NCBI RefSeq assembly: GCF_011039085.1
Contig: NZ_JAAKEI010000008.1
Span: 1 to 64,000 of the forward strand
From: Desulfovibrio sp. ZJ369
GTDB taxonomy: Bacteria; Desulfobacterota; Desulfovibrionia; Desulfovibrionales; Desulfovibrionaceae
DNA length: 64,000 nt
Direction of reading: 5' to 3'
A program made the translations under genes and the position numbers. Below the pieces are notes generated by a model. It saw only the letters and a program-made list of their open reading frames with translations. It was not told the DNA's origin and made no database searches. Below are positions 7,523 to 62,873 of this stretch, piece after piece. Numbering within the stretch: position 1 is the first letter of the stretch; the number at the start of each line of letters is the position of its first letter.

Positions 7523-8725
7523 ATGGCCAGAATCCTGATCATCGGCGCGGGCGGCGTGGGCAGCGTGGTGGCGCACAAATGCGCTCAGGCCGCCAGAGAG
7601 ACCGGCGTTTTCGAGCACATTACCCTTGCCAGCCGCACGCTGGCCCGCTGCACGGATATCGCCCGCAGCGTCAAGGCCCGCATGGGCGTGGATATTGCCA
7701 CGGCCCAGGTGGATGCGGACAACGTGCCCGATCTCTGCACGCTGATCCGCGCGGTCCAGCCGGATCTGGTCTGCAATGTGGCCTTGCCCTACCAGGATCT
7801 GCATATTATGGACGCCTGCCTGGAATGCCGGGTGCACTATGTGGATACGGCCAATTATGAGCCTCTGGACACAGCCAGGTTCGAGTATAAATGGCAGTGG
7901 GCCTATGCCGACCGCTTTCGCGAGGCCGGGCTCACGGCGCTGCTCGGTTCGGGCTTTGATCCCGGGGTGACCAATGTTTTCGCGGCCTGGGCCCTGAAGC
8001 ATGAGCTGGACGAAGTGCATGTGCTGGACATCATCGACTGCAATGCCGGAGATCACGGCAAGCCTTTTGCCACCAATTTCAATCCGGAAATCAACATCCG
8101 CGAGGTCACGGCTCCGGGGCGCTACTGGGAACACGGCGAATGGGTGGAAACCGATCCCCTGTCCTGGTCCATGACCTATGCCTTCCCGGACGGCATCGGC
8201 CCCAGGAAGTGCTACCTCATGTATCATGAGGAGCTGGAATCCCTGGTCAACAATCTCAAGGGCCTGCGCCGGGCGCGTTTCTGGATGACATTTTCCGATA
8301 CTTATCTGAATCATCTCAAGGTGCTGGGCAATGTGGGCATGACCCGCATCGATCCCGTGCGCTTCCAGGGCCGGGATATTGTGCCCATTCAGTTCTTGTC
8401 GGCCCTGTTGCCTGATCCGGCCTCCCTCGGGCCGCTGACCAGGGGCAAGACCTGCATCGGCGATCTTTTGCGCGGGCTGAAGGACGGCAGGGAAAAAAAC
8501 GTCTATATCTACAATGTCTGCGATCATCAGGCCGCCTATGCCGAAGTGGGCTCCCAGGCCATTTCCTACACGACGGGCGTGCCCGCCATGATCGGCTCCA
8601 AGCTCATTGCCCAGGGCCTGTGGCGCAGGCCCGGCGTGTGGAACATGGAGCAATTTGATCCGGATCCCTTTATGGCGGATCTGAATGTGTACGGTCTGCC
8701 CTGGCAGTGCGTGGAAGTGAAGTAG
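7523..8725 (+). CDS. Carboxynorspermidine synthase (saccharopine dehydrogenase family)
   Basis: This 400-residue protein begins ARILIIGAGGVGSVVAHK, an NAD(P)H-binding Rossmann motif, preceded by the ribosome site GAAGGAG. The body matches the saccharopine-dehydrogenase-like enzymes that condense aspartate semialdehyde with a diamine and reduce the product to carboxynorspermidine or carboxyspermidine. The partner decarboxylase gene follows after 12 bp, which supports the assignment over lysine metabolism. The stop codon TAG is the first three bases of a TAGAGC repeat half. Confidence 0.9.
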   Translation: MARILIIGAGGVGSVVAHKCAQAARETGVFEHITLASRTLARCTDIARSVKARMGVDIATAQVDADNVPDLCTLIRAVQPDLVCNVALPYQDLHIMDACLECRVHYVDTANYEPLDTARFEYKWQWAYADRFREAGLTALLGSGFDPGVTNVFAAWALKHELDEVHVLDIIDCNAGDHGKPFATNFNPEINIREVTAPGRYWEHGEWVETDPLSWSMTYAFPDGIGPRKCYLMYHEELESLVNNLKGLRRARFWMTFSDTYLNHLKVLGNVGMTRIDPVRFQGRDIVPIQFLSALLPDPASLGPLTRGKTCIGDLLRGLKDGREKNVYIYNVCDHQAAYAEVGSQAISYTTGVPAMIGSKLIAQGLWRRPGVWNMEQFDPDPFMADLNVYGLPWQCVEVK

Positions 8726-8737
8726 AGCGTTTTGCTA

Positions 8738-9970
8738 ATGGACTGCCTGGACTTCCTTTTCTCAGAGCAAAACAACGTGCCTTCGCCCTGCTTTGTGCTG
8801 GACGCGGCGCGGCTTGCGGCCAATGCCGCCATTCTTGACAAGGTGCAGCGCCGCACGGGCGCGAAGATTCTGCTGGCCCTCAAGGGCTACGCGGCCTGGG
8901 CCACCTTTCCGCTGTTGTCGCGCTTCACGGGGCACGGGCCGCTCTGGGGCACATGCGCCAGTTCCGTGGACGAGGCGCGCCTGGGGCGGGAGCAATTCGG
9001 CGGTCAGGTGCATGCCTTTGCCGCGGCCTGGAGCGCGGAGGAAGTGGCCGAGCTGCTCGATCTGGCGGATCACATCGTCTTCAATTCCACGGCCCAGTGG
9101 CGGCAATTCCGGCCCGTCATCGAAGCCCGCAACCGCGCGTGCCGCGCGGGCCAGGCCATTGAATGCGGGCTGCGGATCAATCCCGAGCATTCCGAGGGCG
9201 CAACGCCCATCTATGATCCCTGCTCGCCGGGCTCGCGCCTGGGCATCCGGCAACGGGACTTTGAGCCCGCGGCGCTGGAAGGCATTTCGGGCCTGCATTT
9301 TCATACGCTGTGCGAGCAGGGCGCGGACGCCCTGGCCCGCACGCTCGCCGCCGTGGAAGAAAAATTCGGAGCCTGGCTGCCCGCGTGCCGCTGGATCAAT
9401 TTCGGCGGCGGCCACCATATCACCAGGCCGGGCTATGATCTGGATCTGCTCTGCCGTTGCCTGACGGACTGGCATGAGCGGTATCAGGCGCAAATTTATC
9501 TGGAACCCGGCGAGGCAGTGGCCCTCAATGCCGGATGGCTGACGGCCACGGTGCTGGACGTGATCCGCGCGGATATGCCCGTGGCGATTCTGGATGCCTC
9601 GGCGGCCTGCCACATGCCGGATGTGCTTGAAATGCCCTACCGGCCCGATGTTTATTATGCCCTGCACGGCAGGGCCGCTCGCGCCGGAGCGGCCGGGGAG
9701 CAGGCCTGGACCTGCCGCCTGGCGGGCAAGTCCTGTCTGGCCGGGGACGTGATCGGGGAATACAGTTTCGCGGGGCCCCTGCGGGTGGGCCAGAGACTGG
9801 TTTTCGGGGACATGGCCATTTACAGCATGGTCAAGACCACGACCTTCAACGGCCTGCGCCTGCCGTCCATCGGCATTTGCGAGCCGGACGGATCTGGCCC
9901 GGACGGGAAAAAACGTTTTTCTCTGCTGCGTTCTTTCACCTATGCGGATTTCAAGAACAGGTTGTCCTGA
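8738..9970 (+). CDS. nspC: Carboxynorspermidine decarboxylase
   Basis: This 410-residue PLP enzyme removes the carboxyl group from carboxynorspermidine or carboxyspermidine, the last step of this spermidine route. It has the alanine-racemase-like barrel with the PLP lysine in LLALKGYAAW (Lys49), a phosphate-binding glycine run (NFGGGHH), and EPGEAV. Length is slightly above usual. No clear ribosome-binding site precedes the ATG at 8738, because the upstream bases are a repeat half (TAGAGCGTTTTGCT). A TTG two codons earlier is an alternative start. Translation may depend on coupling to the preceding gene. Confidence 0.9.
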   Translation: MDCLDFLFSEQNNVPSPCFVLDAARLAANAAILDKVQRRTGAKILLALKGYAAWATFPLLSRFTGHGPLWGTCASSVDEARLGREQFGGQVHAFAAAWSAEEVAELLDLADHIVFNSTAQWRQFRPVIEARNRACRAGQAIECGLRINPEHSEGATPIYDPCSPGSRLGIRQRDFEPAALEGISGLHFHTLCEQGADALARTLAAVEEKFGAWLPACRWINFGGGHHITRPGYDLDLLCRCLTDWHERYQAQIYLEPGEAVALNAGWLTATVLDVIRADMPVAILDASAACHMPDVLEMPYRPDVYYALHGRAARAGAAGEQAWTCRLAGKSCLAGDVIGEYSFAGPLRVGQRLVFGDMAIYSMVKTTTFNGLRLPSIGICEPDGSGPDGKKRFSLLRSFTYADFKNRLS

Positions 9971-10037
9971 TCCGCAGGCCCAAAAGCCGCAACCCATCCG
10001 GATACGATGTGCGGCAGAAGCGGCGCGCTTCTCTTCT

Positions 10038-10180
10038 TTTAGAGCAGATTACCTTTGACTTTTTATGAAAGTCAAAGTGGCATTCAGGCGAAAAACGCGG
10101 TTTTCGCCTGAATGTACGCCGCATTGCGGCGGCTGCCGCTTTCGCGTCAGCAGAGCATTTTCAAAGAGAAATTGCTCTAG
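10038..10180. repeat. 143-bp composite palindromic element, copy A
   Basis: The ends read TTTAGAGC and GCTCTAG. Inside are two strong hairpins: CTTTGACTTT...GAAAGTCAAAG, and ATTCAGGCGAAAA...TTTTCGCCTGAAT (10082-10113). Copy B at 47654-47797 is nearly identical, with five differences by my count. The right end supplies the stop codon of the minus-strand deacetylase gene. The rest of the 9971-10176 gap holds no gene. Confidence 0.9.
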
Positions 10181-11154
10181 GAAACCGGCGCGCCCGCGGC
10201 ATGGCCTGCCGGGGGCAGAAGCGTGTTGTGCTGTTCAAGAGCCTGGCCGGGCAGAGGCGGGGCAGGGCTTTCCGGCTGCCAGGGCTTGCTGCTCCTGGCC
10301 AGGGGCACAGGGCCGGAGCCCGCGGGCCAACTGCGGGGCGGGGGCATCTCCGCGCTTTGCTTCACGGCCTCCATTTCATGCCGGGCAGCAAGGGGCATCT
10401 GGCCCGGCGTCTCGCGCAGCGAACGGCGCGTCATGAGCAGTCCGGGTTCAGGGTCCAGCACGCCTTCAAGATATTCGCTCACTGTCACAAAACGCTGGCA
10501 GCCGCCTGTACGCAGCTCTCTGATGATCCGGGGCAGATCCTCCACCGTGCTCTTGTGCGTGTCGTGAAACAGAAAGACGCCGCGCAACATGCCGGGGGGG
10601 TAGGCATAGCCGCGGGTGTTGTGTAACTTGGCGTAATCCGCGGGCAAGTGCTGCCAGTCGCGGCTGTCCACGGACCACAGCACCACCGAAAGACCCAGGG
10701 CCTCGGCGGCCTCAACCGTATGGGTATCAAATGCGCCATACGGCGGCCGCAAAAAGAGCGGCGCGGCCCCAAGGGAGCGCAGAACAGCGTCAGTGCGGCG
10801 GATTTCGTCGATTTTGCGCTCCGGCGCGAGCAGGCGAAGGTTGGGGTGCGAAAAGGAATGATTGCCCACCTCATGCCCTTCGGCCACAATCCGCCGCACA
10901 AGATCCGGGTACAGTTCGGCCTGCTGGCCCAGCACAAAGAAGGTGGCCGGGATGCCGTACTGGTTGAGCAGATCCAACAGTTGCGGCGTATTGCGCGAAG
11001 GCCCGTCGTCAAAGGTGATGGCGCAGAGATTTTCATTCATGCGCTGATCCATGATGCTGCCGCCGTCCAGCACGCGGGCCGGCAAGCTCTCGGCCATCAG
11101 GATCAGCAAAGCGCAAAGCGCGGCGATGTTGAGCGTTTTCAGGGAAAATTTCAT
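10177..11154 (-). CDS. Polysaccharide deacetylase (NodB domain), exported
   Basis: This protein of about 325 residues has a signal-peptide-like N-terminus and a NodB homology domain. Carbohydrate-esterase-4 motifs are present: TFDDGPS (catalytic Asp pair), HSFSHPNL (metal His residues) and RPPYGAF. It should remove acetyl groups from peptidoglycan, chitin-like or capsular sugars outside the membrane. The last 90 residues are Pro/Ala/Ser-rich and probably disordered. ATG 11154 is chosen; a GTG five codons upstream also fits. The TAG stop lies inside the repeat at 10038-10180. Confidence 0.9.
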   Translation of the reverse strand: MKFSLKTLNIAALCALLILMAESLPARVLDGGSIMDQRMNENLCAITFDDGPSRNTPQLLDLLNQYGIPATFFVLGQQAELYPDLVRRIVAEGHEVGNHSFSHPNLRLLAPERKIDEIRRTDAVLRSLGAAPLFLRPPYGAFDTHTVEAAEALGLSVVLWSVDSRDWQHLPADYAKLHNTRGYAYPPGMLRGVFLFHDTHKSTVEDLPRIIRELRTGGCQRFVTVSEYLEGVLDPEPGLLMTRRSLRETPGQMPLAARHEMEAVKQSAEMPPPRSWPAGSGPVPLARSSKPWQPESPAPPLPGQALEQHNTLLPPAGHAAGAPVS

Positions 11155-11319
11155 TATGCAATCCGCCACTCACTGAAGTTCTGTAAAACAGGTAACACTC
11201 CCCATGACGGCTCGCAAGGCGGCGCGCGCAGGTCATGCCGTAACGTAAAAAATTAGTTAATAAAATTACTAAGTTAAAAAATAATATTTGTAAAAATTTT
11301 TTTACCGGGCTGATTCCGC

Positions 11320-11346
11320 TTGACTCCGGCGGCGGTTTTACATAAA
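11320..11346 (+). promoter_or_regulatory. Probable sigma70 promoter of the tRNA-Val/tRNA-Asp operon
   Basis: TTGACT (11320-11325) is followed by the -10-like stretch TACATAAA (11339-11346). The spacing is short if CATAAA is used. A strongly AT-rich run (about 11250-11305) lies upstream, possibly acting as an UP element. tRNA-Val starts 14 nt downstream. Confidence 0.5.
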
Positions 11347-11359
11347 AGGTTGCTTCCGA

Positions 11360-11435
11360 GGGCAGTTAGCTCAGCTGGTAGAGCACCGCCTTCACACGGC
11401 GGGGGCCACAGGTTCAAGTCCTGTACTGCCCACCA
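11360..11435 (+). tRNA. tRNA-Val (anticodon CAC)
   Basis: A complete cloverleaf is visible. The acceptor GGGCAGT pairs with ACTGCCC, the anticodon stem CCGCC/GGCGG encloses loop TTCACAC, and the T arm has GGTTCAAGTCC. CCA is encoded. Confidence 0.97.
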
Positions 11436-11437
11436 AC

Positions 11438-11514
<77 letters not shown>

Positions 11515-11539
11515 AATTTGCGCCAGGGCCTGCCCTGGA

Positions 11540-11580
11540 AAGCCGGGAATCTTACAGTCGGTAAGGTTCCCGGCTTTTTT
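11540..11580 (+). terminator. Rho-independent terminator of the tRNA operon
   Basis: A 10-bp stem (AAGCCGGGAA at 11540-11549 with TTCCCGGCTT at 11567-11576) runs into a run of six T. Confidence 0.9.
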
Positions 11581-11832
11581 GCATGGATCCCCCCCGCGCT
11601 GCGGGGGCAAAACGCTCCAGGCCGCCCGCAAGGGGGGGGCGCAGGCCTGTCGCGCCGAAAGGCGCATGGCTGTCAAAAATGCCGCAGCCGCATGGCGCGA
11701 ACTGTTCAGGCAAGCCGTGTACCGCGAAGATCCAGCGTTGGCCGACTTTTTGCATATATGCAGGCATGTTTGTATTCCGATTGTGACGGCATACGGCCGC
11801 ACATCGGGCCGCCATGCCAAAGCGAGGTTTGC

Positions 11833-12429
11833 ATGAAGCCTGTCATCTGGTTGCTGGGTCTTTCCGGGAGCGGAAAAACCACCCTGGGTTCTTTGCTGCG
11901 TCTGTACCTGGAAGCGCAGGGCCATGAAACGGAATTTATTGATGGGGATCGCTTTCGCCGCCAGTTCGGCTTCAGCGGTTTTCGGCCTGAAGATCGTCTG
12001 CGCAATATTGAGGCCATGCGTGAGCATGTGCTGCAACTGCACGCGCAGGACAAAATTTGCGTTGTGGCTGCCATCACGCCCTATGCGAGCATGCGCCAGA
12101 AAAACCGCGAGCAGATTCCCCTGTATCGCGAGGTCTGGGTGCGTTGCTCCCTGAGCACGCTTGTGCAACGTGACACCAAGGGGCTTTACGCCAGGGCCGC
12201 GCGCGGGGAAGTGGATCTGCTGACCGGCGTCTCTGATGCCTTCGACGAGCCGCTCGGCACAGATTGCATCATTGATACGGATCAGCTCTCGCTGGCTGAA
12301 AGCTACCTTGCGCTGCGCGATCTTGCGTTGAGCGCCCTGGCCGAGGGTCGGAACTGGCGGCGCATGCAACCGGAATTGTCGCCCGAAGTCGTGCAGGGCA
12401 GTCTGCGGCACGCGGAAGTGTTCATGTAG
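11833..12429 (+). CDS. Adenylylsulfate (APS) kinase-like protein
   Basis: This 198-residue protein has a P-loop GLSGSGKTT at 9-17 and the CysC-type DGDRFR, followed by a GFSGFRPEDRLRNI segment that corresponds to the APS-binding region of APS kinases. The usual reaction is ATP plus APS giving PAPS. Sulfate reducers respire APS directly, so a CysC homologue here may serve sulfation or another nucleotide-activating role. The substrate residues diverge from classical CysC, so specificity is not certain. Start ATG 11833 follows GCGAGGTTTGC. About 250 bp of non-coding sequence separate it from the tRNA terminator. Confidence 0.8.
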   Translation: MKPVIWLLGLSGSGKTTLGSLLRLYLEAQGHETEFIDGDRFRRQFGFSGFRPEDRLRNIEAMREHVLQLHAQDKICVVAAITPYASMRQKNREQIPLYREVWVRCSLSTLVQRDTKGLYARAARGEVDLLTGVSDAFDEPLGTDCIIDTDQLSLAESYLALRDLALSALAEGRNWRRMQPELSPEVVQGSLRHAEVFM

Positions 12430-12568
12430 TATTTATTGCCGCATCAGGATGCTGGCCCTTGCCGCGCGGCGCACGCTGGGCGGCAGGGCAGTCCGGAGGC
12501 GGACGCGGCGCGCACGCGCGTGAGCCCTCGCTGTGCCAGTCATGAGCCGCCGGAGAGCGGAAACAATA

Positions 12569-12598
12569 CGACGGCCGGATCGATCAATCCGGCCGTCG
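12569..12598 (-). terminator. Terminator hairpin after tRNA-Arg
   Basis: A 12-bp perfect stem (12569-12580 with 12587-12598) with a 6-nt loop begins 10 bp past the tRNA-Arg 3' end. On the minus strand it is followed by the T-rich TATTGTTT. Confidence 0.75.
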
Positions 12599-12607
12599 CT
12601 TGCATTC

Positions 12608-12684
<77 letters not shown>

Positions 12685-12697
12685 ATGGGGAAATGTT

Positions 12698-12726
12698 TAC
12701 ATAGCTTCTGTGCGGAACCGCGTCAA
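12698..12726 (-). promoter_or_regulatory. Sigma70 promoter of tRNA-Arg
   Basis: On the minus strand, TTGACG (12726-12721) and TATGTA (12703-12698) are separated by exactly 17 bp. The predicted transcript would begin about 7 bp before the mature tRNA. Confidence 0.8.
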
Positions 12727-12912
12727 GTCAGGATATTCAGAGAGGCATTCACCTTTTTGATGATTTTTTGAAAAATTCATTTTGAATTTCAGATGGTTGC
12801 AATACTATTTTCATTGAAGGCATGAATGTCTCGAAGCGCGCCCTGGATTGCAGCCCGATTGTTTTTGTGGGATAAAACAGGCTGAAACGCTTGAATCGGA
12901 AAAGGAAAAAGT

Positions 12913-13491: not shown

Positions 13492-13501
13492 GGACAAAGC
13501 A

Positions 13502-14188: not shown

Positions 14189-14328
14189 GCGGGCAAGACC
14201 GTCTGCCGGGGGGAGCGAGAGCCTTCCCGGCCCGAGCGTTTTCAGATTCCAATGGAAGCGGGCGCTCCTCCGGCACGCCACCGGAAAGCAGGTAAAATCC
14301 GGCTTCGCCGGTGCGACGCGGGAGCTTT

Positions 14329-14365
14329 AGAGCATTTAGCTGATTTTCATGAGCAAAACGCTCTA
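14329..14365. repeat. TAGAGC palindrome at the motB stop codon
   Basis: Arms AGAGCATTTAGCT and GCAAAACGCTCT surround a short loop. Read on the minus strand, the element begins TAGAGCGTTTTGC, and this TAG is the motB stop. It lies between convergent genes and may terminate transcription in both directions. Confidence 0.8.
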
Positions 14366-22270: not shown

Positions 22271-22756
22271 ATGAGTCAGGCTATGGATCAGAAACACGTT
22301 CAGGATGAGCATGACGATGATCTGCTCCAACTGGTCACCTTCCGCATCGGCGAAGAGGAGTTCGGCGTGGATATCCTGGCCGTGCAGGAAATCATCCGCC
22401 TGATGCAGATCACTATGGTCCCGCGCGCCCCGGCTTTCATTGAAGGCGTGATCAACCTGCGCGGCAAGGTCATTCCGGTGATCAACATGCGTACTCGCTT
22501 CAGCATGGCCGCAGTGACGCACGACGCCAATACGCGCATTGTGGTCATGGAATTCGGGCAGAAAATCGTGGGCTTTCTGGTGGATGCGGTCTCTGAAGTG
22601 CTGCGCATTCCGGCAAACACCGTGGAGGACGCGCCGCCGGTGGTGGCCGGCATCGGCTCCGAGTATATCAAGGGCGTTGGCAAGCTGCACGACAGACTGC
22701 TCATTCTGCTTGACCTGAACAACTTATTGGGCGACATGAATCTTGATACATTGTAG
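22271..22756 (+). CDS. cheW: Chemotaxis coupling protein CheW
   Basis: CheW links chemoreceptors to the kinase CheA. The 161-residue protein is a single CheW domain: LVTFRIGEEEFGVDI, EIIRLMQITMVPRAP, GVINLRGKVIPVINMR and a C-terminal LLILLDLNNLL all match. A 20-residue acidic N-terminal tail precedes it. ACGGAGG lies before the ATG. It is a lone gene, apart from other chemotaxis genes. Its stop TAG is the first three bases of a TAGAGC palindrome, and a sigma28-like promoter lies upstream. Confidence 0.95.
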   Translation: MSQAMDQKHVQDEHDDDLLQLVTFRIGEEEFGVDILAVQEIIRLMQITMVPRAPAFIEGVINLRGKVIPVINMRTRFSMAAVTHDANTRIVVMEFGQKIVGFLVDAVSEVLRIPANTVEDAPPVVAGIGSEYIKGVGKLHDRLLILLDLNNLLGDMNLDTL

Positions 22757-22781
22757 AGCATTCTGCCATTGAGAATGCTCT
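22754..22781 (+). repeat. TAGAGC palindrome at the cheW stop codon
   Basis: Arms AGAGCATTCT (22755-22764) and AGAATGCTCT (22772-22781) are exact complements around a 7-nt loop. It probably acts as a terminator-like hairpin although no T run follows. Confidence 0.85.
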
Positions 22782-22844
22782 CAGGCCGCATGCGGCGCGG
22801 CGTGCCGCCCCGGCAGCAACGCCAGACGCGTTTTTCGGCGGAAC

Positions 22845-28870: not shown

Positions 28871-28992
28871 AGGTGCTAGCAACACCTTTCCCTGGGCGGA
28901 ACCGCCGCCGACACGCGCGGGGTCGTACTTGCTCTGGCAAGCGCGACCGCCTCTCTGCGTATGCTGTCGGGAGTGCGGTGAATACAACACCT
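28871..28992. promoter_or_regulatory. Pair of GGTG-N7-CACC operator-like sites
   Basis: AGGTG-CTAGCAA-CACCT (28871-28887) and CGGTG-AATACAA-CACCT (28976-28992) share both half-sites and the last two spacer bases. The centres are 105 bp apart, about ten helical turns. They lie in the 389-bp divergent region between lepA and the CI-like regulator, so they are candidate binding sites for that regulator. A further inverted repeat, GGCAAT-N13-ATTGCC (29039-29063), lies closer to the gene. Otherwise the region holds no gene. Confidence 0.4.
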
Positions 28993-29086
28993 CGCAAGAG
29001 GGAATAAACCTGCCGTCCTGGGGCGGTTGCTAGCTCCCGGCAATTGCTTGTTGCGCGATTGCCCATCAGCAACGCCGGAGAGCAAA

Positions 29087-42469: not shown

Positions 42470-44478
42470 AGATTACCATTCAGGGATTGTCCAAATCCTT
42501 TGGCGGGCGCGACATTTTCAGCAATTTTTCGCTGGAGGTGGATTCCGGCGTGCGCTTGTGCGTCTGCGGGCCCAACGGCACGGGCAAATCCACCCTGCTG
42601 CGCCTGCTGGCCGGGGTGGAGGCTCCTGACGGCGGCCGCGTGATTCTGCCCAAAGGCTGCCGCCTGGGCTATGTGGAGCAGGAACTTTCCGAAGAAGCTC
42701 TGGACACGCCGCTGCTGCACTATGTGCTGGACGTGGTGCATGACTGGAATGACTTCTGGGCCGAGTGGGAACAAGCCGCGGCCCGCAGGGACGAAGCTCT
42801 GCTGACGCAGCTCATGCACCGCCAGGCCGAACTGGAGGCCATGTACGGCTACAATCCTGAGCACCGGGCCAAGGCCGTGCTGACGGGCCTGGGCTTTGCC
42901 GAGGACAAGTGGGAACGCCCCCTGCGCAGCCTTTCGGGCGGCTGGCGGGAACGGGCCAAACTGGCGCGCGTGCTCACGGCCGGGGCCGATGTGCTCTTGC
43001 TGGACGAGCCTACCAACCATCTGGACATGGAAGCCGTGGAATGGCTTGAGACTTTTTTGCTGGATTTCAAGGGCGCGCTGGTTTTTGTGGCCCATGACCG
43101 CCTGTTCATGGATACTGTGGGCAGTCATGTGCTGTATCTGGGCCTGTCCCGGCCTGTGTTCCGCAAGGCGACCTACACGCAGTTTCTGACCTTGCAGGAG
43201 GAATACAATGCCCAGCGCGAGCGCGAGGCCCGCGCCCTGCAGGACGAGCTGAACCGCAAAATGGCCTTTGTGGAGCGCTTCCGGGCCAAGGCCACCAAGG
43301 CCCGGCAGGCCGGATCGCGGCAGAAGATGGCCAAAAAGCTGGAAAAGGAGCTGGAGGACTACCGGCCCGAACCCAAACGCAAGGAACTCAGTTTTTCCTG
43401 GCCTGAGGCCCCGCACTCGGAAAAAATCGTGCTGGCCGTGGCTGATCTTGCCTTTCATTTCCCGGACGGCAAGACCATGTGGCCGCCCCTGACCTTCACG
43501 CTGTATCGCGGCCAGCGCGTGGCCCTGGTGGGTCATAACGGCTGCGGCAAGTCCACTCTGCTCAAGCTGCTGGCCGGGCAGCTGGAACGCTGCGGCGGCA
43601 ATCTGGTCGCGGCTTCCCAGATGCGCCTGGGCTATTACACCCAGCACCAGATGGAAACCCTGCGCCCGGATACCACGGTGCTGGGCGAAATCCGCCGCCT
43701 TTCCGATCCGCGCACCACGGAAGAGGAGCTGATGAGCGTGCTCGGGCTCTTTCTGCTGGGTCAGGAGTATTTCGACCGCCAGGTCAGCGCCCTGTCCGGC
43801 GGCGAAAAAAGCCGCCTGGTGCTGGCCAGCCTGTTTTTGAAGCGCTGCAATTTTCTGCTTCTGGACGAGCCCACCAACCATCTGGATTTGGAAAGTCGCG
43901 AGGCCCTGGTGGCGGCCCTGCAAAAATTTACCGGCACGCTCCTGATGGTGGCGCATGACCGCTGGCTGCTCTCGCAGGTGGGAGCGGAAGCCTGGGAGCT
44001 GAACAGCGCCGGGCTGACCGCCTATGCGGATTTCAAGGCCTATGATGCGGCGCGCCGGGCGCAGCCGGTCGCGGACGGCGCGCACCCCGGCATGGCCGCC
44101 GCGCCGCAGGCGCACAAAGGCAAGCCTGGGGGCGCGGGCGCTGCCAAAACGACCGCGCCCGCGGTCCGGCCGCTTTCCCGCGAGGATCAGAAGCGCCTCA
44201 AGCGTCAGCAGGCGGAAAAACGCAATGCCCTGCACAAGGAGCTCAAGCCCCTGCAAAGCAGGTCCGCGGCCCTGGAGGAAGAACTGGCCCGCGTGCTGCA
44301 AGAACAGTCGGACGTGGAAGGCCAGCTGGCAGACCCGGCCGTCTATGCGGATCACAGCCGTTCCGGCGAACTGCTCAAGCGTTTTGAGGAATGCAAGCGC
44401 CGCGGCGAGGAGTTGCTGGAGGAAATGGCCGGGCTGGAAGAAAAGATCGCGGCCATCAAAGACAAGTGCGGCTTTTAG
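42466..44478 (+). CDS. ABC-F family ATPase (Uup-like)
   Basis: This 670-residue soluble protein has two ABC domains: GPNGTGKST, LSGGWRERAKL and LLLDEPTNHLD, then GHNGCGKST, LSGGEKSRL and LLLDEPTNHLD. There is no transmembrane part. A linker rich in Arg/Lys/Ala joins them. A C-terminal region (about 560-665) with a coiled coil is like Uup, which acts on branched DNA or ribosomes. The GTG start at 42466 overlaps the previous stop. Its own stop TAG starts a TAGAGC repeat. Confidence 0.92.
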   Translation: MKITIQGLSKSFGGRDIFSNFSLEVDSGVRLCVCGPNGTGKSTLLRLLAGVEAPDGGRVILPKGCRLGYVEQELSEEALDTPLLHYVLDVVHDWNDFWAEWEQAAARRDEALLTQLMHRQAELEAMYGYNPEHRAKAVLTGLGFAEDKWERPLRSLSGGWRERAKLARVLTAGADVLLLDEPTNHLDMEAVEWLETFLLDFKGALVFVAHDRLFMDTVGSHVLYLGLSRPVFRKATYTQFLTLQEEYNAQREREARALQDELNRKMAFVERFRAKATKARQAGSRQKMAKKLEKELEDYRPEPKRKELSFSWPEAPHSEKIVLAVADLAFHFPDGKTMWPPLTFTLYRGQRVALVGHNGCGKSTLLKLLAGQLERCGGNLVAASQMRLGYYTQHQMETLRPDTTVLGEIRRLSDPRTTEEELMSVLGLFLLGQEYFDRQVSALSGGEKSRLVLASLFLKRCNFLLLDEPTNHLDLESREALVAALQKFTGTLLMVAHDRWLLSQVGAEAWELNSAGLTAYADFKAYDAARRAQPVADGAHPGMAAAPQAHKGKPGGAGAAKTTAPAVRPLSREDQKRLKRQQAEKRNALHKELKPLQSRSAALEEELARVLQEQSDVEGQLADPAVYADHSRSGELLKRFEECKRRGEELLEEMAGLEEKIAAIKDKCGF

Positions 44479-44511
44479 AGCGTTGCGCTGCTTTCATGAG
44501 CAAAATGCTCT
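44476..44511. repeat. TAGAGC palindrome at the ABC-F stop codon
   Basis: Arms AGAGCGTTGCGCT and AGCAAAATGCTCT flank TTTCATG, with two or three mismatches between arms. The TAG stop of the ABC-F gene is its first three bases. Confidence 0.8.
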
Positions 44512-44573
44512 GGCCCCACGCGGGATCTGCGGGCTGAAAACGGCAACGATTCGCTGCGGCGGCGGAGATCAGT

Positions 44574-47653: not shown

Positions 47654-47797
47654 TTTAGAGCAGATTACCTTTGACTTTTTATGAAAGTCAAAGGTGGCAT
47701 TCAGGCGAAAAACGCGGTTTTCGCCTGAATGTACGCCGCGTTGCGGCGGCTGCCGCTTTCGCGTCAGCAGAGCATTTTCAAAGTAAAAATGCTCTAG
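47654..47797. repeat. 144-bp composite palindromic element, copy B
   Basis: It is nearly identical to the element at 10038-10180, in the same orientation, with one extra G, one A/G change and three changes in the last hairpin. It lies within the thi operon between thiG and thiH. The remaining spacer (47798-47980) has no gene that I recognise. Confidence 0.92.
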
Positions 47798-47979: not shown

Positions 47980-48030
47980 TTAGAGTATTCTTTGATTGAA
48001 AATGGATATGTTCAATCAAAAAACGCTCTA
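47980..48030. repeat. TAGAGC-family hairpin at the thiG stop codon
   Basis: The inner arms TTTGATTGAA and TTCAATCAAA form a 10-bp stem, and the outer ends are TTAGAGTATT and AACGCTCTA. On the minus strand it begins with TAGAGCG, whose TAG is the thiG stop. A close relative sits at 48870-48920. Confidence 0.85.
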
Positions 48031-48869: not shown

Positions 48870-48920
48870 TAGGGCATTTTTTGATTGAAAATGAATATGT
48901 TCAATCACAAATTGCCCTAG
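48870..48920. repeat. TAGGGC-variant hairpin at the thiS stop codon
   Basis: It matches 47980-48030 in its inner stem (TTGATTGAAAATG...TTCAATCA) but has ends TTAGGGCA and TTGCCCTAG. On the minus strand its first TAG is the thiS stop. Confidence 0.85.
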
Positions 48921-49166: not shown

Positions 49167-49195
49167 AAGCACAGACCCGCGCGGGCGGGCTGGTC

Positions 49196-53009: not shown

Positions 53010-53023
53010 GCTTGCGCATACGC

Positions 53024-53029: not shown

Positions 53030-53070
53030 TTTTTTTCTCAATATGAGACTTGGTAATTGCGAGCGAAAGC

Positions 53071-53192
53071 TGCAAGAGAGCACCCGCGCTGCGCCGTGAA
53101 CACAAGCGCGCCGCCACGGGGTCGCCGAAGGGGCAAGGCCGCCAGGCTGAAACTCTCAGGCATCAGGATTGCAGCCGGACGCACCTCTGAAC
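53071..53192 (+). promoter_or_regulatory. Glycine riboswitch, single aptamer
   Basis: The conserved blocks are in order: AAGAGAGC, then GTCGCCGAAGGGGCAA, a short arm, GAAACTCTCAGGCATCAGGA, and CCGGACGCACCTCTG. These match the glycine aptamer consensus closely. Only one aptamer is seen, not the usual tandem. It lies about 45 bp before the GTG of grdX, at the head of an operon that consumes glycine, so glycine probably induces expression. Confidence 0.93.
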
Positions 53193-53236
53193 CGCCTCCA
53201 GCGCGACAGAGCCAATGCAAACGCGGGAGCTTTGCC

Positions 53237-53797: not shown

Positions 53798-53986
53798 CCT
53801 GCGCCGGTCGGGCCGGTCCGGTCCGTGGCAGGCGCAAGGGCAAAGAGCGGCATGCCCCTCTTCTCGCGACGCGCGGCGGCGCTGCGCGGGCCTGTTGCCC
53901 GCGAATCCGGAGCGCGGGGCCGCCGTTTTCTCTCTGCGAACTCAATCAGCCCAAGGCTGACGACCGTCTGACCCAAGGAGTTTGTC

Positions 53987-55273: not shown

Positions 55274-55352
55274 ACAGCGCCTTTTTGACTTCCGGCTGCA
55301 CCCTCCAGGTTTTTCAGGAACAGCGCGGAAATGACACAGGAAGGAGTGGAGT

Positions 55353-56663: not shown

Positions 56664-56719
56664 GAAACAGGGAGAAGGCCGCGCCGCCGGAGCAGAGCGG
56701 CGCGGCTCAAGGAGAGAGC

Positions 56720-57637: not shown

Positions 57638-57696
57638 CGGCTTGCCGGGCGCGCGGAGCGTCCCGCGACGGCTGTTTTTACGCTAAGGAGCAACAC

Positions 57697-59247
57697 ATGG
57701 GCAATGTCGGCATCAAAGGCACGGCCTACTGCCTGAATTTCGCGCCCGAGCTGGCCCTGCACTACGGCGGCACACCCTCTCAGGAGCGGCGCGCCAAGCC
57801 GGATTCCGAGTATTTGCAGACCCTGCCCGGCCGCGCCCAGAGTTACGAGGAGGCCGCGGGCTACGCGCCCAACAAGGTCTACATCGGCGCCATGTCCGTG
57901 GACGATCTGGCCAGGGCGCCGACGCCCTGGCTGGAACATCCGGGCGCGCCCGAGCGTTACGGCAGGTTCGGGGAGATCATGCCTGAGGATGAGTTCCTCG
58001 GCTTTCTGGACATTTGCGACGTTTTTGATCTGATCTGGCTGGAAAAGGATTTTGCGGCCGCTGTGCGGGAAAAGCTGGCCGGGGATCCGGCCGTGGGCGA
58101 AAGTCAGTTGGCCCGCCTGGAAGCCGGGCATGAGGCCGCGGAGATCGCCCAGGCCGTGGAAAAGCACGGCGCGCTGCCCCTGTACAGCAAGGGCAGTGTG
58201 GCGGGCTGCTGCCGCCGGGCCCATGACTCGGACGAAAACCTTTCGGCGCATGTGATGCTGGAAAACCTGGCCTGCAAGGCCAGCGGCGTGCTGGCGCTGC
58301 TGCACATGATCAAAAATTGCGGCCTTGAGCCTTCGGACATCGACTTTGTGGTGGAATGCTCCGAAGAGGCCGTGGGCGACGTGATGCAGCGCGGCGGCGG
58401 CAACATGGCCAAGGCCGTGGCCGAAATCGCGGGCTGCGCCAATGCCAGCGGCTTTGATGTGCGCGGCTTCTGCGCCGGGCCGGCCGCGGCCGTGATCGCC
58501 GGAGCGGGCATGGTGGCCTCTGGCCTGCGCAAAAACGTGGCCGTGGTTGGCGGCGGATCCTTGCCCAAGCTGTATATGAACTCCCGCGATCACATCAAAA
58601 AGGGGCTCCCGGCCCTGGAAAACTGCATGGGCAGTTTCGCGATCCTGCTTGTGCCGGATGAAGGCAGCCTGCCCGTGATCCGCCTGGATTCCATCGGCAA
58701 GCATACTGTGGGCGCAGGCGCGGCCCCGCAGGCCATTACTTCGGCCCTGACCTTTGAGCCGCTCGCCCGTCTGGGCCTCAGGCTCACGGATGTGGACAAG
58801 TACGCGCCCGAACTGCACAACGCTGAAATCACCCTGCCCGCGGGCGCGGGCAACGTGCCGGAGGCCAATTACAAGATGATCGCGGCGCTGGCGGTCATGA
58901 AGGGCCAGCTCAAGCGGGAGGAAATCCCGCAATTCGCGGCAGAGCGCGGTATTCCGGGCTTTGTGCACACCCAGGGCCACATTCCGTCGGGCGTGCCCTA
59001 CATGGGACATGCCTGCGACGCCCTGGCGGCCGGAACAATCCGGCGCGCCATGATCATCGGCAAGGGCAGTCTGTTTCTGGGCCGCCTGACCAATCTGGCC
59101 GATGGCGCGTCCTTCATCATGGAGGGTCCGGGCCGCGGCGCGCCCCGGGCCGCCGCAAGCGCGGCAGCGGGCGTGAGCAGGGAGGATGTGCGGGAAATGC
59201 TGCTGGACGCGCTTTCGGAACTGGCCGCCAACCTGCAGAAAAGCTGA
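57697..59247 (+). CDS. grdC: Glycine reductase complex C, GrdC
   Basis: This 516-residue beta subunit of component C releases the acetyl group from GrdA as a thioester. Its fold is related to FabH-type ketosynthases. Start and length match the family (VGIKGTAYCLNFAPELALHYGG). The gene follows trxB by 59 bp and precedes grdD by 8 bp. The ribosome site CTAAGGAG is strong. Confidence 0.95.
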   Translation: MGNVGIKGTAYCLNFAPELALHYGGTPSQERRAKPDSEYLQTLPGRAQSYEEAAGYAPNKVYIGAMSVDDLARAPTPWLEHPGAPERYGRFGEIMPEDEFLGFLDICDVFDLIWLEKDFAAAVREKLAGDPAVGESQLARLEAGHEAAEIAQAVEKHGALPLYSKGSVAGCCRRAHDSDENLSAHVMLENLACKASGVLALLHMIKNCGLEPSDIDFVVECSEEAVGDVMQRGGGNMAKAVAEIAGCANASGFDVRGFCAGPAAAVIAGAGMVASGLRKNVAVVGGGSLPKLYMNSRDHIKKGLPALENCMGSFAILLVPDEGSLPVIRLDSIGKHTVGAGAAPQAITSALTFEPLARLGLRLTDVDKYAPELHNAEITLPAGAGNVPEANYKMIAALAVMKGQLKREEIPQFAAERGIPGFVHTQGHIPSGVPYMGHACDALAAGTIRRAMIIGKGSLFLGRLTNLADGASFIMEGPGRGAPRAAASAAAGVSREDVREMLLDALSELAANLQKS

Positions 59248-59255
59248 GGTCTGTC

Positions 59256-60482
59256 ATGGCGGATACATATGCAAGCAAACAGGCGCGGCAGAGCCCTGAC
59301 CCCGATACTTCCGGCCGCAACAAACGCGCCCTGATCGGCGAAGCCCTGGCGGAGCTGGTGGCCGCGGCCGGAGGGGGCGGCCCGCGCCTGCGTATCGGCC
59401 TGATGGCCGCGGGCGGCGAAGTGCCGGTGGAAGACTATCTGCAGGGCGCGGCCCTGGCCATGCGCCACGATCCCCGCATCCAGGCCGTGGGCCTGGGCCC
59501 CAGGCCCGACGCGCTTCTGCCCCCCGGTATGGATTGGATTGAGACTCCGGCCTGCGAGGCCGATATGGCCGCGGCTATGGAAAAAGCCCTGGAAAGCACT
59601 GGCCACGGGGCATTGCACGGCGCTGTGGCGCTGCACTATCCCTTTCCGGTGGGCGTTGCCACGCTGGGCCGCATCCAGACCCCGGCCAGGGGCAGACCCA
59701 TGATCCTGGCTTCTTCCACGGGCATCAGCGCGCCGCACCGGGCCTGCGCCATGCTGCGCAATGCCCTCTACGGGATTGCGGCGGCCAAGGCCCTGGGCGT
59801 GGAAAATCCGAGCCTGGGCGTGCTCAATCTGGATGCCGCGCCTCAGGTTCTGCGCGCTCTGGCCCGATTGCGGGAACGGGGCTACCCCGTGCGCTTTGGA
59901 GAAAGCGTGCGCAGCGACGGCGGCGCGCTGCTGCGCGGCAACGATCTCCTCGCGGGCGCGGCGGATGTCTGCGTCTGCGACACCTTGACCGGCAACGTGC
60001 TGATGAAGGTCTTCGCGGCTTTCAACAGCGGCGGCGTCTACGAGACTGCGGGCTGGGGGTACGGCCCTTCGGCCGGGGAAGGCTGGGACAAGGTGGTTTC
60101 CATCATCTCCCGCGCATCGGGCGCGCCGGTCATCGCCAATGCTCTGGCCTGCACGGCGCAGGCCGTGCGCGGCAATCTGCCGGGCAGGGTGGCCGAGGAG
60201 CTCAGAGCTGCGCGGGCTGCGGGCCTGGACGGAGAACTGGCGGCTTTGGAACCGCAGGCCGCGTCCGCGCAGGACGCGCCGCCGGCCATGCCGCCGGTCG
60301 AGCCCACGGATGAAGAAATCCACGGCATTGACGTGCTGGATCTGGAAAATGCGGTGCATGCCCTGTGGAAAGTGGGCATTTATGCCGAAGCCGCCATGGG
60401 CTGCACCGGCCCGGTGATTAAGCTGGCGGCCGCGGCCAGGGCGCGGGCCGGGGAAGTGCTCAGGGCAGCGGGCTATGTATAG
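59256..60482 (+). CDS. grdD: Glycine reductase complex C, GrdD
   Basis: This 408-residue alpha subunit of component C makes acetyl phosphate, through phosphate attack on the acetyl thioester, and is related to PlsX-type phosphate acyltransferases. AMGCTGPVIKLA near the C-terminus and the segment ASSTGISAPHRACAMLRNA are family features. It is 8 bp after grdC and works with it. The acetyl phosphate gives ATP through acetate kinase, whose gene is not in the window. Confidence 0.94.
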   Translation: MADTYASKQARQSPDPDTSGRNKRALIGEALAELVAAAGGGGPRLRIGLMAAGGEVPVEDYLQGAALAMRHDPRIQAVGLGPRPDALLPPGMDWIETPACEADMAAAMEKALESTGHGALHGAVALHYPFPVGVATLGRIQTPARGRPMILASSTGISAPHRACAMLRNALYGIAAAKALGVENPSLGVLNLDAAPQVLRALARLRERGYPVRFGESVRSDGGALLRGNDLLAGAADVCVCDTLTGNVLMKVFAAFNSGGVYETAGWGYGPSAGEGWDKVVSIISRASGAPVIANALACTAQAVRGNLPGRVAEELRAARAAGLDGELAALEPQAASAQDAPPAMPPVEPTDEEIHGIDVLDLENAVHALWKVGIYAEAAMGCTGPVIKLAAAARARAGEVLRAAGYV

Positions 60483-60581
60483 GCCCGGCGTGCGGCGCGG
60501 GAGCATTCTGCCCTGAAGTAGGGCGAAGAAGGGCCGGGCTCAGGCGACACTGCCGCGACAACTCAACCAGCGAGGTGGATT

Positions 60582-60902
60582 ATGCTCATTGTGGACAAGG
60601 AAAATTTTGAAGCCGAGGTGCTTAACAGTGCTGTGCCGGTCATTGTGGATCTCTGGGGCCCGCAGTGCGGCCCTTGCCTTGCGCTCATGCCGCAGGTGGA
60701 GGAACTGGCCGGTCAATATGAAGGCAAAATCAAATTCTGCAAGCTCAATGTGGCCGAAAACCGCCGCCTGGTCATTTCCCTGAAGGTCATGGCCGTGCCC
60801 ACCATTCTTTTTTACAAGGGCGGGCAAAACGTGCAGCGGATCAGCAGCGACCAGGTGACCCTGGAAGCCATCAGGGCAGGCGCGGAAAGCTTGTTGCAGT
60901 AA
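60582..60902 (+). CDS. trxA: Thioredoxin of the glycine reductase operon
   Basis: This 106-residue thioredoxin has the active site WGPQCGPC (Cys29 and Cys32). The usual WAxWCGPC is changed by a Gln before the first Cys, and other grd-linked thioredoxins differ in this motif too. It passes electrons from TrxB to GrdA. A cis-Pro in MAVPTILFY is present. Confidence 0.94.
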
Positions 60903-60996
60903 ACTCTTCGCCAGGGGGAATCCTTTCCCCCGCCGCCGGATTGCGCGGCGGCGCATGACTCTGGCGGATAAGCGTGTAAACCAAAAGGAGATTGGC

Positions 60997-61473
60997 ATGG
61001 GCAAGTTAACCGGCAAGAAACTGCTGCTGCTGGGCGAGCGGGACGGCGTTCCCGGCCCGGCTATGGCAGCGGTATTCGCCAATTCGGGAGCCGAAGTGCT
61101 GTTTTCGGCCACCGAATGTTTTGTCTGAACAGCCGCAGGCGCCATGGACCTGGAAAATCAGCAGCGCGTGAAAGACGCCGCTGAAAAGGTCGGGGCGGAA
61201 AACCTGGTGGTGGTGCTCGGCTCTTCCGATCCCGAAGGGGCGGAAATTTATGCCGAAACCGTCACTCTGGGCGACCCTACCTTTGCCGGTCCGTTGGCCG
61301 GAGTCCCGTTGGGGCTCTGCGTGTACCACATTTTTGGAGAGGAAATGAAAAGCGAGGCTGATCCCGCGGCCTGGGAAGAGCAGATCGCCATGATGGAAAT
61401 GGTGCTGAACACCGAAGCTCTGGCCGCGGCAGTAAAAAAAATGCGCGAGGCCAACAGCAAATATATGCTGTAA
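60997..61473 (+). CDS. grdA: Glycine reductase selenoprotein A, GrdA
   Basis: This 158-residue protein carries the selenocysteine that takes the carboxymethyl group from GrdB. The UGA at 61126-61128 (residue 44) is inside [16 protein letters not shown], the conserved redox motif of GrdA (Cys41 and Sec44). The frame continues to 61473. AAAAGGAGATTGGC precedes the ATG. A weak hairpin (CAGG 61136-61139 with CCTG 61149-61152, 9-nt loop) is the best SECIS candidate. The gene is last in the operon, unlike orders where it lies near grdE. Confidence 0.95.
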
Positions 61474-61500
61474 GCCGTGGGCAAAAGCGCAAGGAATCCG

Positions 61501-61533
61501 ACCCCGCAGGGTGTTCTGCCCTGCGGGGTTTTT
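61501..61533 (+). terminator. Terminator of the grd operon
   Basis: An 11-bp stem, ACCCCGCAGGG (61501-61511) with CCCTGCGGGGT (61519-61529), is followed by a T run. Confidence 0.95.
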
Positions 61534-61546
61534 GTGTCTTCTCCTG

Positions 61547-61579
61547 GAGCGTTTTGCTCATGAAAGTAGCAAAACGCTC
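61547..61579. repeat. TAGAGC-family palindrome after the grd operon
   Basis: GAGCGTTTTGCT (61547-61558) and AGCAAAACGCTC (61568-61579) are exact complements around a 9-nt loop. The first base differs from TAGAGC (here GGAGC). Confidence 0.85.
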
Positions 61580-61678
61580 TCAACTGACACGGCCCTGACC
61601 GTGGGAGGAAAGTCCGGAGAGGCGCTTTGCGGCAATCTGCTGTTTACGGAGCGGACAAAAGCCCGTAAAGAAAACGCC

Positions 61679-62614
61679 ATGATTTTTTTACATGCCCTGG
61701 GTGGAATTTTCGGCCTCTTGCTGGTCGGCATGGTGGGCTATCTGCTGGCCTGGAGGGGCTGGTTTTCCACGGAATCACAGATGCTGCTGCCCAGGCTCGT
61801 CACCTGTGTGGCGCTGCCGCCCTATCTCATGTCCACGCTCATAAGCTCCTTTGATCGCGACAACCTTCTGCATCTGATCTACGGCTCGCTGCTGCCTTTC
61901 AGCTCGCTGGCGGTGACGTTTGCCCTTGCCTTTGCGGCGGCCAGGCTGTTCCGGGTGCAACGCCGTCATTTGGGCCTCTTTTGCGCCTGCGTCTCCAACT
62001 CCAATACCATTTTTGTGGGCATTCCGGTCAATGTGGCCCTGTTCGGGGAAGAAGCCCTGCCCTATGTGCTGCTCTATTACTTTGCCAGCACCATTTTTTT
62101 CTGGACTGTGGGCAATTACGCGATCAGCAAAGACGGCGGGCAGGGCAAGGGAAAAGTCCGGATCATGGACAATATCCGGCACATATTTTCGCCGCCCATG
62201 CTGGGCTTTCTGACCGGTCTGACCCTGATTTTGTGCAAGATCACCCTGCCGCCTTTCCTCCTGGACGCGGCCAGACTCCTGGGCAACCTGACCACGCCGC
62301 TGGCCCTGCTTTTCATCGGCATCACCCTGTATACCATTGATCTGCGCAAAGTCCGTTTTGATCGAGATCTGATTCTGGCCCTGGTTGGCCGCCTGGTGGT
62401 CAGCCCTCTTGTGATCATGCTTCTGATACCGTTTTTTCCGGTTCCCGATCTGATGGCCAAGGTTTTCATCATGCAGGCCGCGCTGCCGGTTTTGATGCAG
62501 GCCGCCATTTTAAGCGCCCATTACGGCGCGGACGCGGAATTCGGCGCTCTGATGGTTTCACTCTCCACCCTGTTTTCGATCATTACGATTCCTCTGTACA
62601 TGACCCTGCTTTAG
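61679..62614 (+). CDS. AEC-family (auxin efflux carrier-type) transporter
   Basis: This 311-residue membrane protein has about ten predicted helices in two bundles, with the family's SNSNTIFVGIPVNVALFG and GITLYTI segments. AEC proteins export organic acids or amino-acid-like anions; the substrate here is not known. It follows the grd operon but is separated by a terminator and a repeat. Its stop TAG starts the composite repeat at 62612. Confidence 0.88.
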   Translation: MIFLHALGGIFGLLLVGMVGYLLAWRGWFSTESQMLLPRLVTCVALPPYLMSTLISSFDRDNLLHLIYGSLLPFSSLAVTFALAFAAARLFRVQRRHLGLFCACVSNSNTIFVGIPVNVALFGEEALPYVLLYYFASTIFFWTVGNYAISKDGGQGKGKVRIMDNIRHIFSPPMLGFLTGLTLILCKITLPPFLLDAARLLGNLTTPLALLFIGITLYTIDLRKVRFDRDLILALVGRLVVSPLVIMLLIPFFPVPDLMAKVFIMQAALPVLMQAAILSAHYGADAEFGALMVSLSTLFSIITIPLYMTLL

Positions 62615-62873
62615 AGCATTTTGCTTTTGAAATTATTCAATTTCAAAAGCGGCGCTGCCATCATTTCGCGTCCAGGCTTCAGCCGTTGCGACGAAGGAAG
62701 CTACGGATGAAGACAGCAACTGGTTACTGCGGCAGCCAGCCAACGCAACCGCTGTCGCTATCCGTAAGCAAGCAAAGCTTGCTAACGGCTACCGCAACGC
62801 GGTCTGGACGCTCATTCGGCGCGGGCGTCCGCTCCCGCGGCCGCCAGAGCAATTTCAAAGTGAAATTGCTCTA
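62612..62873. repeat. 262-bp composite TAGAGC element
   Basis: It starts TAGAGCATTTTGCTTTTG and ends with the palindrome AGAGCAATTTC...GAAATTGCTCT (62847-62872). The left 41 bp match 631-671 apart from one base, and 30 bp at 62817-62846 match 691-720 exactly. It supplies the stop codon of the gene on either side: plus strand at 62612-62614 and minus strand at 62873-62871. Confidence 0.88.

What the first reader, a model, noticed from the sequence alone, without database searches (positions are those of the whole stretch)
8723..62873. TAGAGC palindromes supply the stop codons of nine genes
Palindromes with ends TAGAGC and GCTCTA occur at many places. At nine genes (carboxynorspermidine synthase, deacetylase, motB, cheW, ABC-F, thiG, thiS, AEC transporter, EPSPS-like) the TAG stop is the first three bases of an element (once the variant TAGGGC). 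Because the element is palindromic, TAG is met when read in from either side. This looks like a mobile or selected 3'-end cassette that ends both translation and perhaps transcription.
Basis: partly seen in the sequence, partly recalled or inferred. Interest (0 to 1): 0.8.

Follow-up and report, generated by a model that had tools for sequence, protein, structure and literature searches.

The report
IS630 mini-transposons parked in stop codons
Tiny hairpin-shaped mobile elements in this Desulfovibrio-like bacterium have jumped into the TA of gene stop codons so often that about one sampled gene in ten now ends in an element, but the genes already stopped there, so this looks like tolerated mobile DNA with a taste for stop codons rather than a cassette that creates gene ends.

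Summary
In 1.24 Mb (43%) of the window's genome, 91 of 930 predicted genes stop at TAG|AGC, i.e. 91 of 278 TAG stops; AGC follows TGA or TAA in 14 of 652. The palindromes are MITEs (non-autonomous elements) sharing ends with a ~1-kb IS630-family (DDE_3) element in the same genome, TA at both ends. The preferred target is Y-TA-R. The base beyond the distal TA is A or G at 41 of 47 gene ends, so the element mostly sits in the TA of an older TAA or TAG stop. Relatives stop at the same codon, nearly all without it (thiG, thiS, motB: 29 of 29 fetched loci each; 26 of 28 gene-relative pairs within three codons). 'Stop supply' is refuted for most genes; 'mobile' is supported. Stop TAs carry elements about 11 times more often than intergenic TAs; target motif and safe gene ends explain most of it, and a ~3-fold excess remains. 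No T-run follows 43 of 45 testable hairpins, so termination of transcription is unsupported. Stop-providing BOX repeats and GTAG-REPs are already in print.

The parts
1..126 (+). 3' end of the IS630-type transposase gene and right terminus of the autonomous element (ending ...AAAAGTTAAAAGCAAAATGCTC|TA), cut by the contig start
   Evidence: Near-identical to the right end of the transposase-bearing copy L047; similar ends in L049, L050, L054, L055
630..679 (.). complete 50-bp MITE hairpin, TA at both ends, shortly downstream of ORF 132-608 (not in a stop)
   Evidence: 23-nt perfect arms; -30 kcal/mol, z -9.5; ORF
8723..8737 (+). half-element remnant giving the TAG of carboxynorspermidine synthase (8723-8725); no complete palindrome; right boundary estimated by eye
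   Evidence: no significant fold (z -0.5); G028 and G024 stop at the same codon without it
10040..10179 (-). 140-bp MITE; TAG of the polysaccharide deacetylase gene at 10177-10179; base beyond distal TA implies an original TAA
14328..14365 (-). 38-bp MITE; TAG of motB at 14363-14365; original TAA implied
   Evidence: motB stops at the same codon in 29 of 29 fetched relatives' loci
22754..22782 (+). MITE with decayed right TA; TAG of cheW at 22754-22756
44476..44512 (+). MITE with decayed right TA; TAG of an ABC-F gene at 44476-44478
47656..47796 (.). 141-bp MITE, intergenic copy (not classed as a stop by the gene caller)
47981..48030 (-). 50-bp MITE; TAG of thiG at 48028-48030; original TAA implied
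   Evidence: 29 of 29 fetched relatives' loci stop at the same codon
48870..48919 (-). 50-bp MITE variant TAGGGC...GCCCTA between thiS and thiG; TAG of thiS at 48917-48919; original TAA implied
62612..62873 (.). 262-bp composite MITE between convergent genes; left TAG = stop of AEC transporter (+, 62612-62614), right TAG = stop of EPSPS-like gene (-, 62871-62873)
   Evidence: classed 'both'; collapsed site CTT[TA]GGC: stops TAG (+) and TAA (-) shared the same TA

Best explanation
The transposase recognises GAGC-starting terminal repeats, inserts at the dinucleotide TA, preferably Y-TA-R, and duplicates the TA. Insertion into the TA of a TAA or TAG stop codon leaves the protein unchanged, because the element's first base is G and the stop becomes TAG. 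Insertions inside genes are lost by selection; insertions at gene ends survive. So stop codons act as a reservoir of harmless, on-motif targets. Shown here: repeat family, shared IS630 ends, TA at both ends, Y-TA-R preference, pre-existing stops, empty sites in relatives. Inferred: that this transposase moves them in trans, and that survival rather than a benefit fills the stops.
For: IS630-type DDE_3: 9 matches in the genome; a 998-bp copy in L048 with ends TAGAGCATTTTCACTTTTA and (reverse) TAGAGTATTTTGCTTTTAA, DDE_3 at E 7.8e-37. Some MITE ends repeat these letters (GAGCATTTTCACTTTGAAAATGC, GAGCATTTTGCTTTTGAAATT). Related IS630 copies in named Desulfovibrionaceae carry TA-GAGCATTTCAACTT-type ends (of 8 loci examined, 2 exact inverted pairs, 4 with 2-3 mismatches, 2 none). 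Target: the base 3' of TA is A/G at 106 of 122 flanks of intergenic elements. Distal base A/G at 41 of 47 stop-side ends: 17 read as old TAA, 24 as old TAG. Same stop in relatives. The orthologue itself has TAG[AG]GC in only 2 of 28 pairs, so most insertions look later than the split. Elements mainly inside called genes: 3 of 107. In G000, more element-borne stops face a convergent neighbour: 40 of 88 against 99 of 395 (p 2e-4).
Against: After matching target motif and distance to gene end, stop TAs still carry about 3 times more elements (OR 3.06, p 2e-4, n=1038; one-sided sites 13 of 310 against 3 of 413, p 0.003); plain TA choice plus survival does not wholly account for it. At 6 of 47 gene ends the distal base is C/T, so there the element made the stop, or ends were mispaired. 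The 17 reverse-order pairs show that up to about one in six of the 107 'complete elements' could be wrongly paired. Some MITE ends (GAGCAGATTACC, GAGCGGTTTGC) differ from the IS ends beyond GAGC. The EPSPS-like and carboxynorspermidine synthase ends are not fixed in relatives (see full report). In G016 the convergent bias is absent (4 of 18 against 45 of 184). No transposition was observed.
Confidence: 0.88

Rival explanations
1. One reading: a 3'-end cassette that creates the stop codon of its host gene.
For: TAG is the stop at 91 of 930 sampled genes; distal base C/T at 6 of 47 ends means a few stops may be new.
Against: Same stop codon in relatives, nearly all without the element: thiG, thiS, motB 29 of 29 fetched loci each; 17 of 28 gene-relative pairs at the identical codon and 26 of 28 within three, against 187 of 259 identical for genes ending otherwise. 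Distal base A/G at 41 of 47.
Confidence: 0.04
2. The hairpins are kept at stops because they act there: as transcription terminators, 3'-end RNA stabilisers, or as brakes on termination like E. coli REPs within 15 nt of a stop.
For: Residual ~3-fold excess at stops; convergent enrichment in G000; folds that start at or next to the stop codon. REPs fewer than 16 nt from a stop are reported to stall ribosomes and lower translation (PMC12306157, passages citing an earlier study).
Against: No T-run after 43 of 45 testable hairpins in G000 and 5 of 5 in G016. One lies between thiS and thiG, inside an apparent operon (inference from order and strand). Convergent enrichment is also expected from mere tolerance, as argued for pneumococcal repeats (PMC3049150 section 6), and is absent in G016. 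Sites are mostly not shared with relatives (2 of 28 pairs). No expression data.
Confidence: 0.25
3. They are REP palindromes moved by an IS200/IS605-type tyrosine transposase (RAYT), whose GTAG tag gives the TAG stop.
For: GTAG-REP termini 'often provide' the TAG stop (PMC3733652, passage); 4 Y1_Tnp matches in the genome; in L344 one GCTCTA end lies near the Y1_Tnp match.
Against: The base before TAGAGC is G at only 21 of 214 ends, so no GTAG tag. TA at both ends and Y-TA-R fit a DDE element. Other TAGAGC ends near Y1_Tnp genes in L343 and L344 match IS630 termini.
Confidence: 0.03
4. Stop codons are actively targeted: the transposase machinery prefers sites at translation or transcription ends, beyond the TA motif.
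For: Residual excess at stops (OR about 3); the stop-bound pattern recurs in G016 (18 of 301 genes; 6 of 14 elements), and different TAG[AG]GC hairpins sit on the same gene's stop in other species (EPSPS-like gene in L087 and L098; thiS in L068 and L083).
Against: For full Y-TA-R sites, stops (25 of 174) are not significantly above sites within 60 bp downstream (11 of 128, p 0.15; 11 of 141, p 0.08). Differential survival can give the same excess.
Confidence: 0.12

Closest known systems
RUP repeats of Streptococcus pneumoniae (with IS630-Spn1)
   Same: Small MITE with TIRs like a resident IS630 and insertion at TA (PMC2229807 passages); enriched between convergent genes (PMC3049150 section 6).
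   Different: [quoted passage not shown] here several families, with 43 of 107 complete copies in stop codons.
BOX repeats of Streptococcus pneumoniae
   Same: The repeat encodes the stop codon of 36 CDSs, without strong evidence of truncation compared with orthologues (PMC3049150 passage): the same phenomenon.
   Different: A different repeat, modular, compared there with ISSpn2; here 91 of 930 sampled genes are involved and the target TA of the old stop can be read off.
GTAG-tagged REPs (RAYT-associated)
   Same: Short palindromes whose terminus often gives a TAG stop to flanking ORFs (PMC3733652 passage).
   Different: No GTAG tag, TA at both ends, DDE-type IS with the same ends.
Correia/NEMIS and ERIC elements
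   Same: MITE-like repeats with TIRs and 5'-TA-3' termini (PMC2229807 table passage).
   Different: Not compared by sequence here.

Membership tests
IS630-derived MITE | Terminal inverted repeats shared with an IS630 in the same genome | tested here: met
   GAGCATTTTCACTTT / GAGCATTTTGCTTTT ends shared with the IS in L048, L047 and window 1-126; some MITE subfamilies share only GAGC plus a few bases
IS630-derived MITE | TA target duplication | tested here: met
   TA at both ends; distal base A/G at 41 of 47 stop ends; many relatives have TAA/TAG at the empty stop, others TGA. No same-species empty site was examined
IS630-derived MITE | Short, multi-copy | tested here: met
IS630-derived MITE | Moved in trans by that transposase | not testable with these tools
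   needs a transposition assay
GTAG-REP / RAYT system | GTAG tetranucleotide at one end | tested here: not met
   G before TAGAGC at 21 of 214 ends
GTAG-REP / RAYT system | Y1 tyrosine transposase flanked by the palindrome | tested here: inconclusive
   4 Y1_Tnp loci. Exact-end scan of these loci showed no matching ends on both sides of the gene, but L344 has one GCTCTA end on one side
Intrinsic terminator | Stem followed by a T-run | tested here: not met
   43 of 45 in G000 and 5 of 5 in G016 lack 5 T in the next 10 bases; 43 and 13 further gene ends had no near right end to test

The most novel reading that the evidence does not exclude
The IS630-type machinery of these Desulfovibrio-like bacteria prefers stop codons themselves, or the cell gains from a hairpin beginning at the stop, so that a transposon family has become a genome-wide layer at about one tenth of gene ends and turns TAA stops into TAG.
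Probability: 0.2. Interest if true: 0.75.

Novelty: new member of a known kind. Interest (0 to 1): 0.45.

Why it matters
It gives a clean, countable case of how mobile DNA can colonise a genome with little damage: a TA-targeting element whose first base is G can enter TAA or TAG and still leave TAG. The footprint is large (91 of 930 sampled genes) and shifts stop-codon usage (17 ends read as old TAA). If hairpins at stops affect termination, as reported for E. coli REPs, many genes here would be affected, which is directly testable.

Tried and rejected
IS5/IS427-type transposases (PF13340, 11 matches) were considered as the mover: in the 11 loci no inward-facing pair of exact TAGAGC/GCTCTA ends surrounded the match, though some loci are cut by contig ends. 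RAYT/REP was set aside on the missing GTAG tag. One element (window 630-679) gave no match in the plasmid collection. Literature: the listings, judged by title and start of abstract, showed no paper on this family in Desulfovibrio; the library lacks most subscription papers. One more paper seen in passages only (PMC6382973) tells of a MITE that made a premature stop in Acinetobacter.

Limits of the counts. Elements with decayed ends were left out of the target statistics: 107 complete pairs were used; the sample holds 602 TAGAGC on both strands, chance ones included. A check of end decay in simple hairpins (both TA kept in 15 of 65 intergenic and 8 of 28 stop ones having at least one TA; 34 intergenic and 9 genic had none) showed no strong bias, but inner hairpins of composite elements confuse it. 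One search stopped with an error before its G016 part and before the composition table was complete; one search repeated the composition for G000 only. In one search hits under 55% identity, under 70% coverage, or ending over 12 residues short were dropped, best hits were not checked for reciprocity, the 28 pairs come from 22 genes, and two control genes ended more than 15 codons away (counted as not identical). Searches gave loci for the 30 best matches only (own genome included), of 48, 46, 47 and 48 genomes with a match; the more distant relatives were not looked at. One search examined 12 of the 67 loci.
Full report
Observation. The window is G000:C97:1-64000 of a 2.88-Mb, 108-contig assembly; the window is 62% G+C. 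All nine named gene ends use the TAG of a TAGAGC (eight) or TAGGGC (thiS) as the stop. TAGAGCN{20,50}GCTCTA occurs 67 times in the genome against 4 for the pattern read backwards, 66 times in one congener (G016, control 0), and 0-18 times in the other 47 congeners listed, many of those being unlike these hairpins.

Scale. In 1,237,659 bases of this genome a simple codon-usage caller gave 930 genes: 437 TGA, 278 TAG and 215 TAA stops. 91 TAG stops run on as TAG|AGC; the next commonest trinucleotide after TAG, CGC, has 18. AGC follows TGA in 5 of 437 and TAA in 9 of 215. In 400 kb of G016, 18 of 301 genes (18 of 129 TAG stops) do so.

What the elements are. They are short hairpins or composites with TA at both ends: lengths 141 (27 copies), 37, 50, 149, 150, 36, 29 and others among 107 complete pairs; 17 pairs in the reverse order give a feel for mispairing. 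The genome holds nine DDE_3 (IS630-type) matches, seven of them within about 1 kb of a contig end. Right ends of these IS copies read ...AAAAAGTTAAAAG.AAAATGCTC|TA or nearly so, and window 1-126 is such an end. A 998-bp copy in L048 has both ends, TAGAGCATTTTCACTTTTA and, reversed, TAGAGTATTTTGCTTTTAA. Its two overlapping frames meet at a run of A, as in elements that use frameshifting (inference), and the second is DDE_3 at E 7.8e-37. Some MITE families repeat these end letters; others share only GAGC and a few bases. Of eight related IS630 loci in named Desulfovibrionaceae that I examined, two have exact TA-GAGCATTTCAACTT inverted pairs (L180, L182), four have GA-starting pairs with 2-3 mismatches, GAGC at least on the left (L176, L178, L181, L184), and two gave none (L177, L190). 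Of four more distant loci, two showed GAGC pairs only with 3 mismatches beside better pairs of other sequence (L183, L196) and two no GAGC pair (L187, L201). G024's contig lengths equal those of CAJTFO010000004.1 and CAJTFO010000001.1, titled Desulfovibrionaceae bacterium isolate A70_62_DF_DSS, so the host group is Desulfovibrio-like; for the window itself this is an inference.

Target. At intergenic copies the base 3' of TA, read outward from both ends, is A 64, G 42, T 9, C 7: the motif is Y-TA-R. At stop-borne ends the base beyond the distal TA is A 17, G 24, C 4, T 2: removing the element leaves TAA or TAG in 41 of 47. In the window, deacetylase, motB, thiG, thiS and the EPSPS-like gene were TAA and AEC was TAG by this reading (flanks); cheW and ABC-F have decayed right ends and 8723 is a half-element. 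The AEC and EPSPS-like genes are convergent, shared one TA in their two stops, and one element now ends both.

Same stop without the element. For each gene 29 relatives' loci were fetched, the best-scoring of 45-47 relatives with a match. thiG, thiS and motB stop at the same codon in 29 of 29 each; a TAG[AG]GC sits on that stop in a few relatives (thiG L057, L058, L068; thiS L068, L071, L080, L083; motB L336), not always with a hairpin. Carboxynorspermidine synthase stops at the identical position in 11 of 29 and within four codons in all 29. The EPSPS-like gene stops at the identical position in 13 of 29, within three codons in 23, and 9-25 codons away in 6 (recounted). In stretches of G028, G024 and G016, 28 gene-relative pairs (22 genes) with TAGAGC in G000 gave 17 at the identical codon, 9 within three codons and 2 farther; genes with other stops gave 187 of 259 identical. 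The relatives' stops were TAA 9, TAG 10, TGA 9, and 2 of the 28 had TAG[AG]GC there. So the stop is mostly older than the element, and the element mostly younger than the species split. Different elements sit on the same gene's stop in other species (EPSPS-like gene in L087 and L098, thiS in L068 and L083).

How much is preference. Per available TA (elements collapsed), stops carry 43 of 486 (8.9%), intergenic TAs 59 of 7216 (0.8%; OR 11.8), TAs inside called genes 1 of 15939. For full Y-TA-R sites: stops 25 of 174, intergenic 44 of 987 (OR 3.6, p 5e-6), and 1-60 bp downstream of stops 11 of 128 (p 0.15). For one-sided sites: 16 of 310 against 3 of 413, or 13 of 310 when only ends consistent with an old stop are counted (p 0.003). 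A logistic model with a target score trained away from gene ends leaves OR 3.06 for being a stop (p 2e-4, n 1038). G016 shows the same direction with small numbers (6 of 207 against 8 of 3160). Thus motif plus tolerance explain most, not all, of the pattern.

Function. The short window elements with both arms fold at -13.7 to -30 kcal/mol; the ABC-F one only weakly better than shuffles (z -2.0), and the 8723 remnant not at all (z -0.5). No T-run follows in 43 of 45 testable G000 cases. Element-borne stops face a convergent neighbour in 40 of 88 cases against 99 of 395 TAA/TAG stops without element (p 2e-4), but not in G016 (4 of 18 against 45 of 184). Tolerance predicts this as well as function does; the same argument is made for pneumococcal repeats (PMC3049150, section 6 read whole).

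Known kinds. The pneumococcal BOX repeat encodes the stop of 36 CDSs without strong evidence of truncation (PMC3049150, passage). GTAG-REP termini often provide TAG stops (PMC3733652, passage). RUP is an IS630-related MITE inserted at TA (PMC2229807, passages). REPs within 15 nt of a stop are reported to stall ribosomes (PMC12306157, passages citing earlier work). This family is therefore a new member of a known kind, notable for the share of gene ends it occupies and for letting the ancestral stop be read from the distal TA.

Noticed in passing
53063-53181: Glycine riboswitch aptamer (Rfam RF00504, 57.1 bits) on the + strand.
   Followed up: no
28965-29050: Match to sRNA-Xcc1 (RF02221) just at the gathering score (53.4 against 53); may be chance.
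   Followed up: no
L048:1031-2028: IS630-type element with two overlapping frames joined at a run of eight A, suggesting frameshifted transposase expression.
   Followed up: partly
L156-L175 (G016 stretches): G016 uses TAG for 129 of 301 predicted stops, more than TGA (94) or TAA (78); only 18 of these are TAGAGC, so another cause may add to it.
   Followed up: no
L087 (G016) and L098 (G009), end of the EPSPS-like gene: Different TAGAGC/TAGGGC hairpins sit on the stop codon of the same gene in other species, which looks like repeated independent insertion.
   Followed up: partly
62871-64000: The 'EPSPS-like' gene piece gives no Pfam match; its full frame is 562 aa and extends past the window.
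   Followed up: partly
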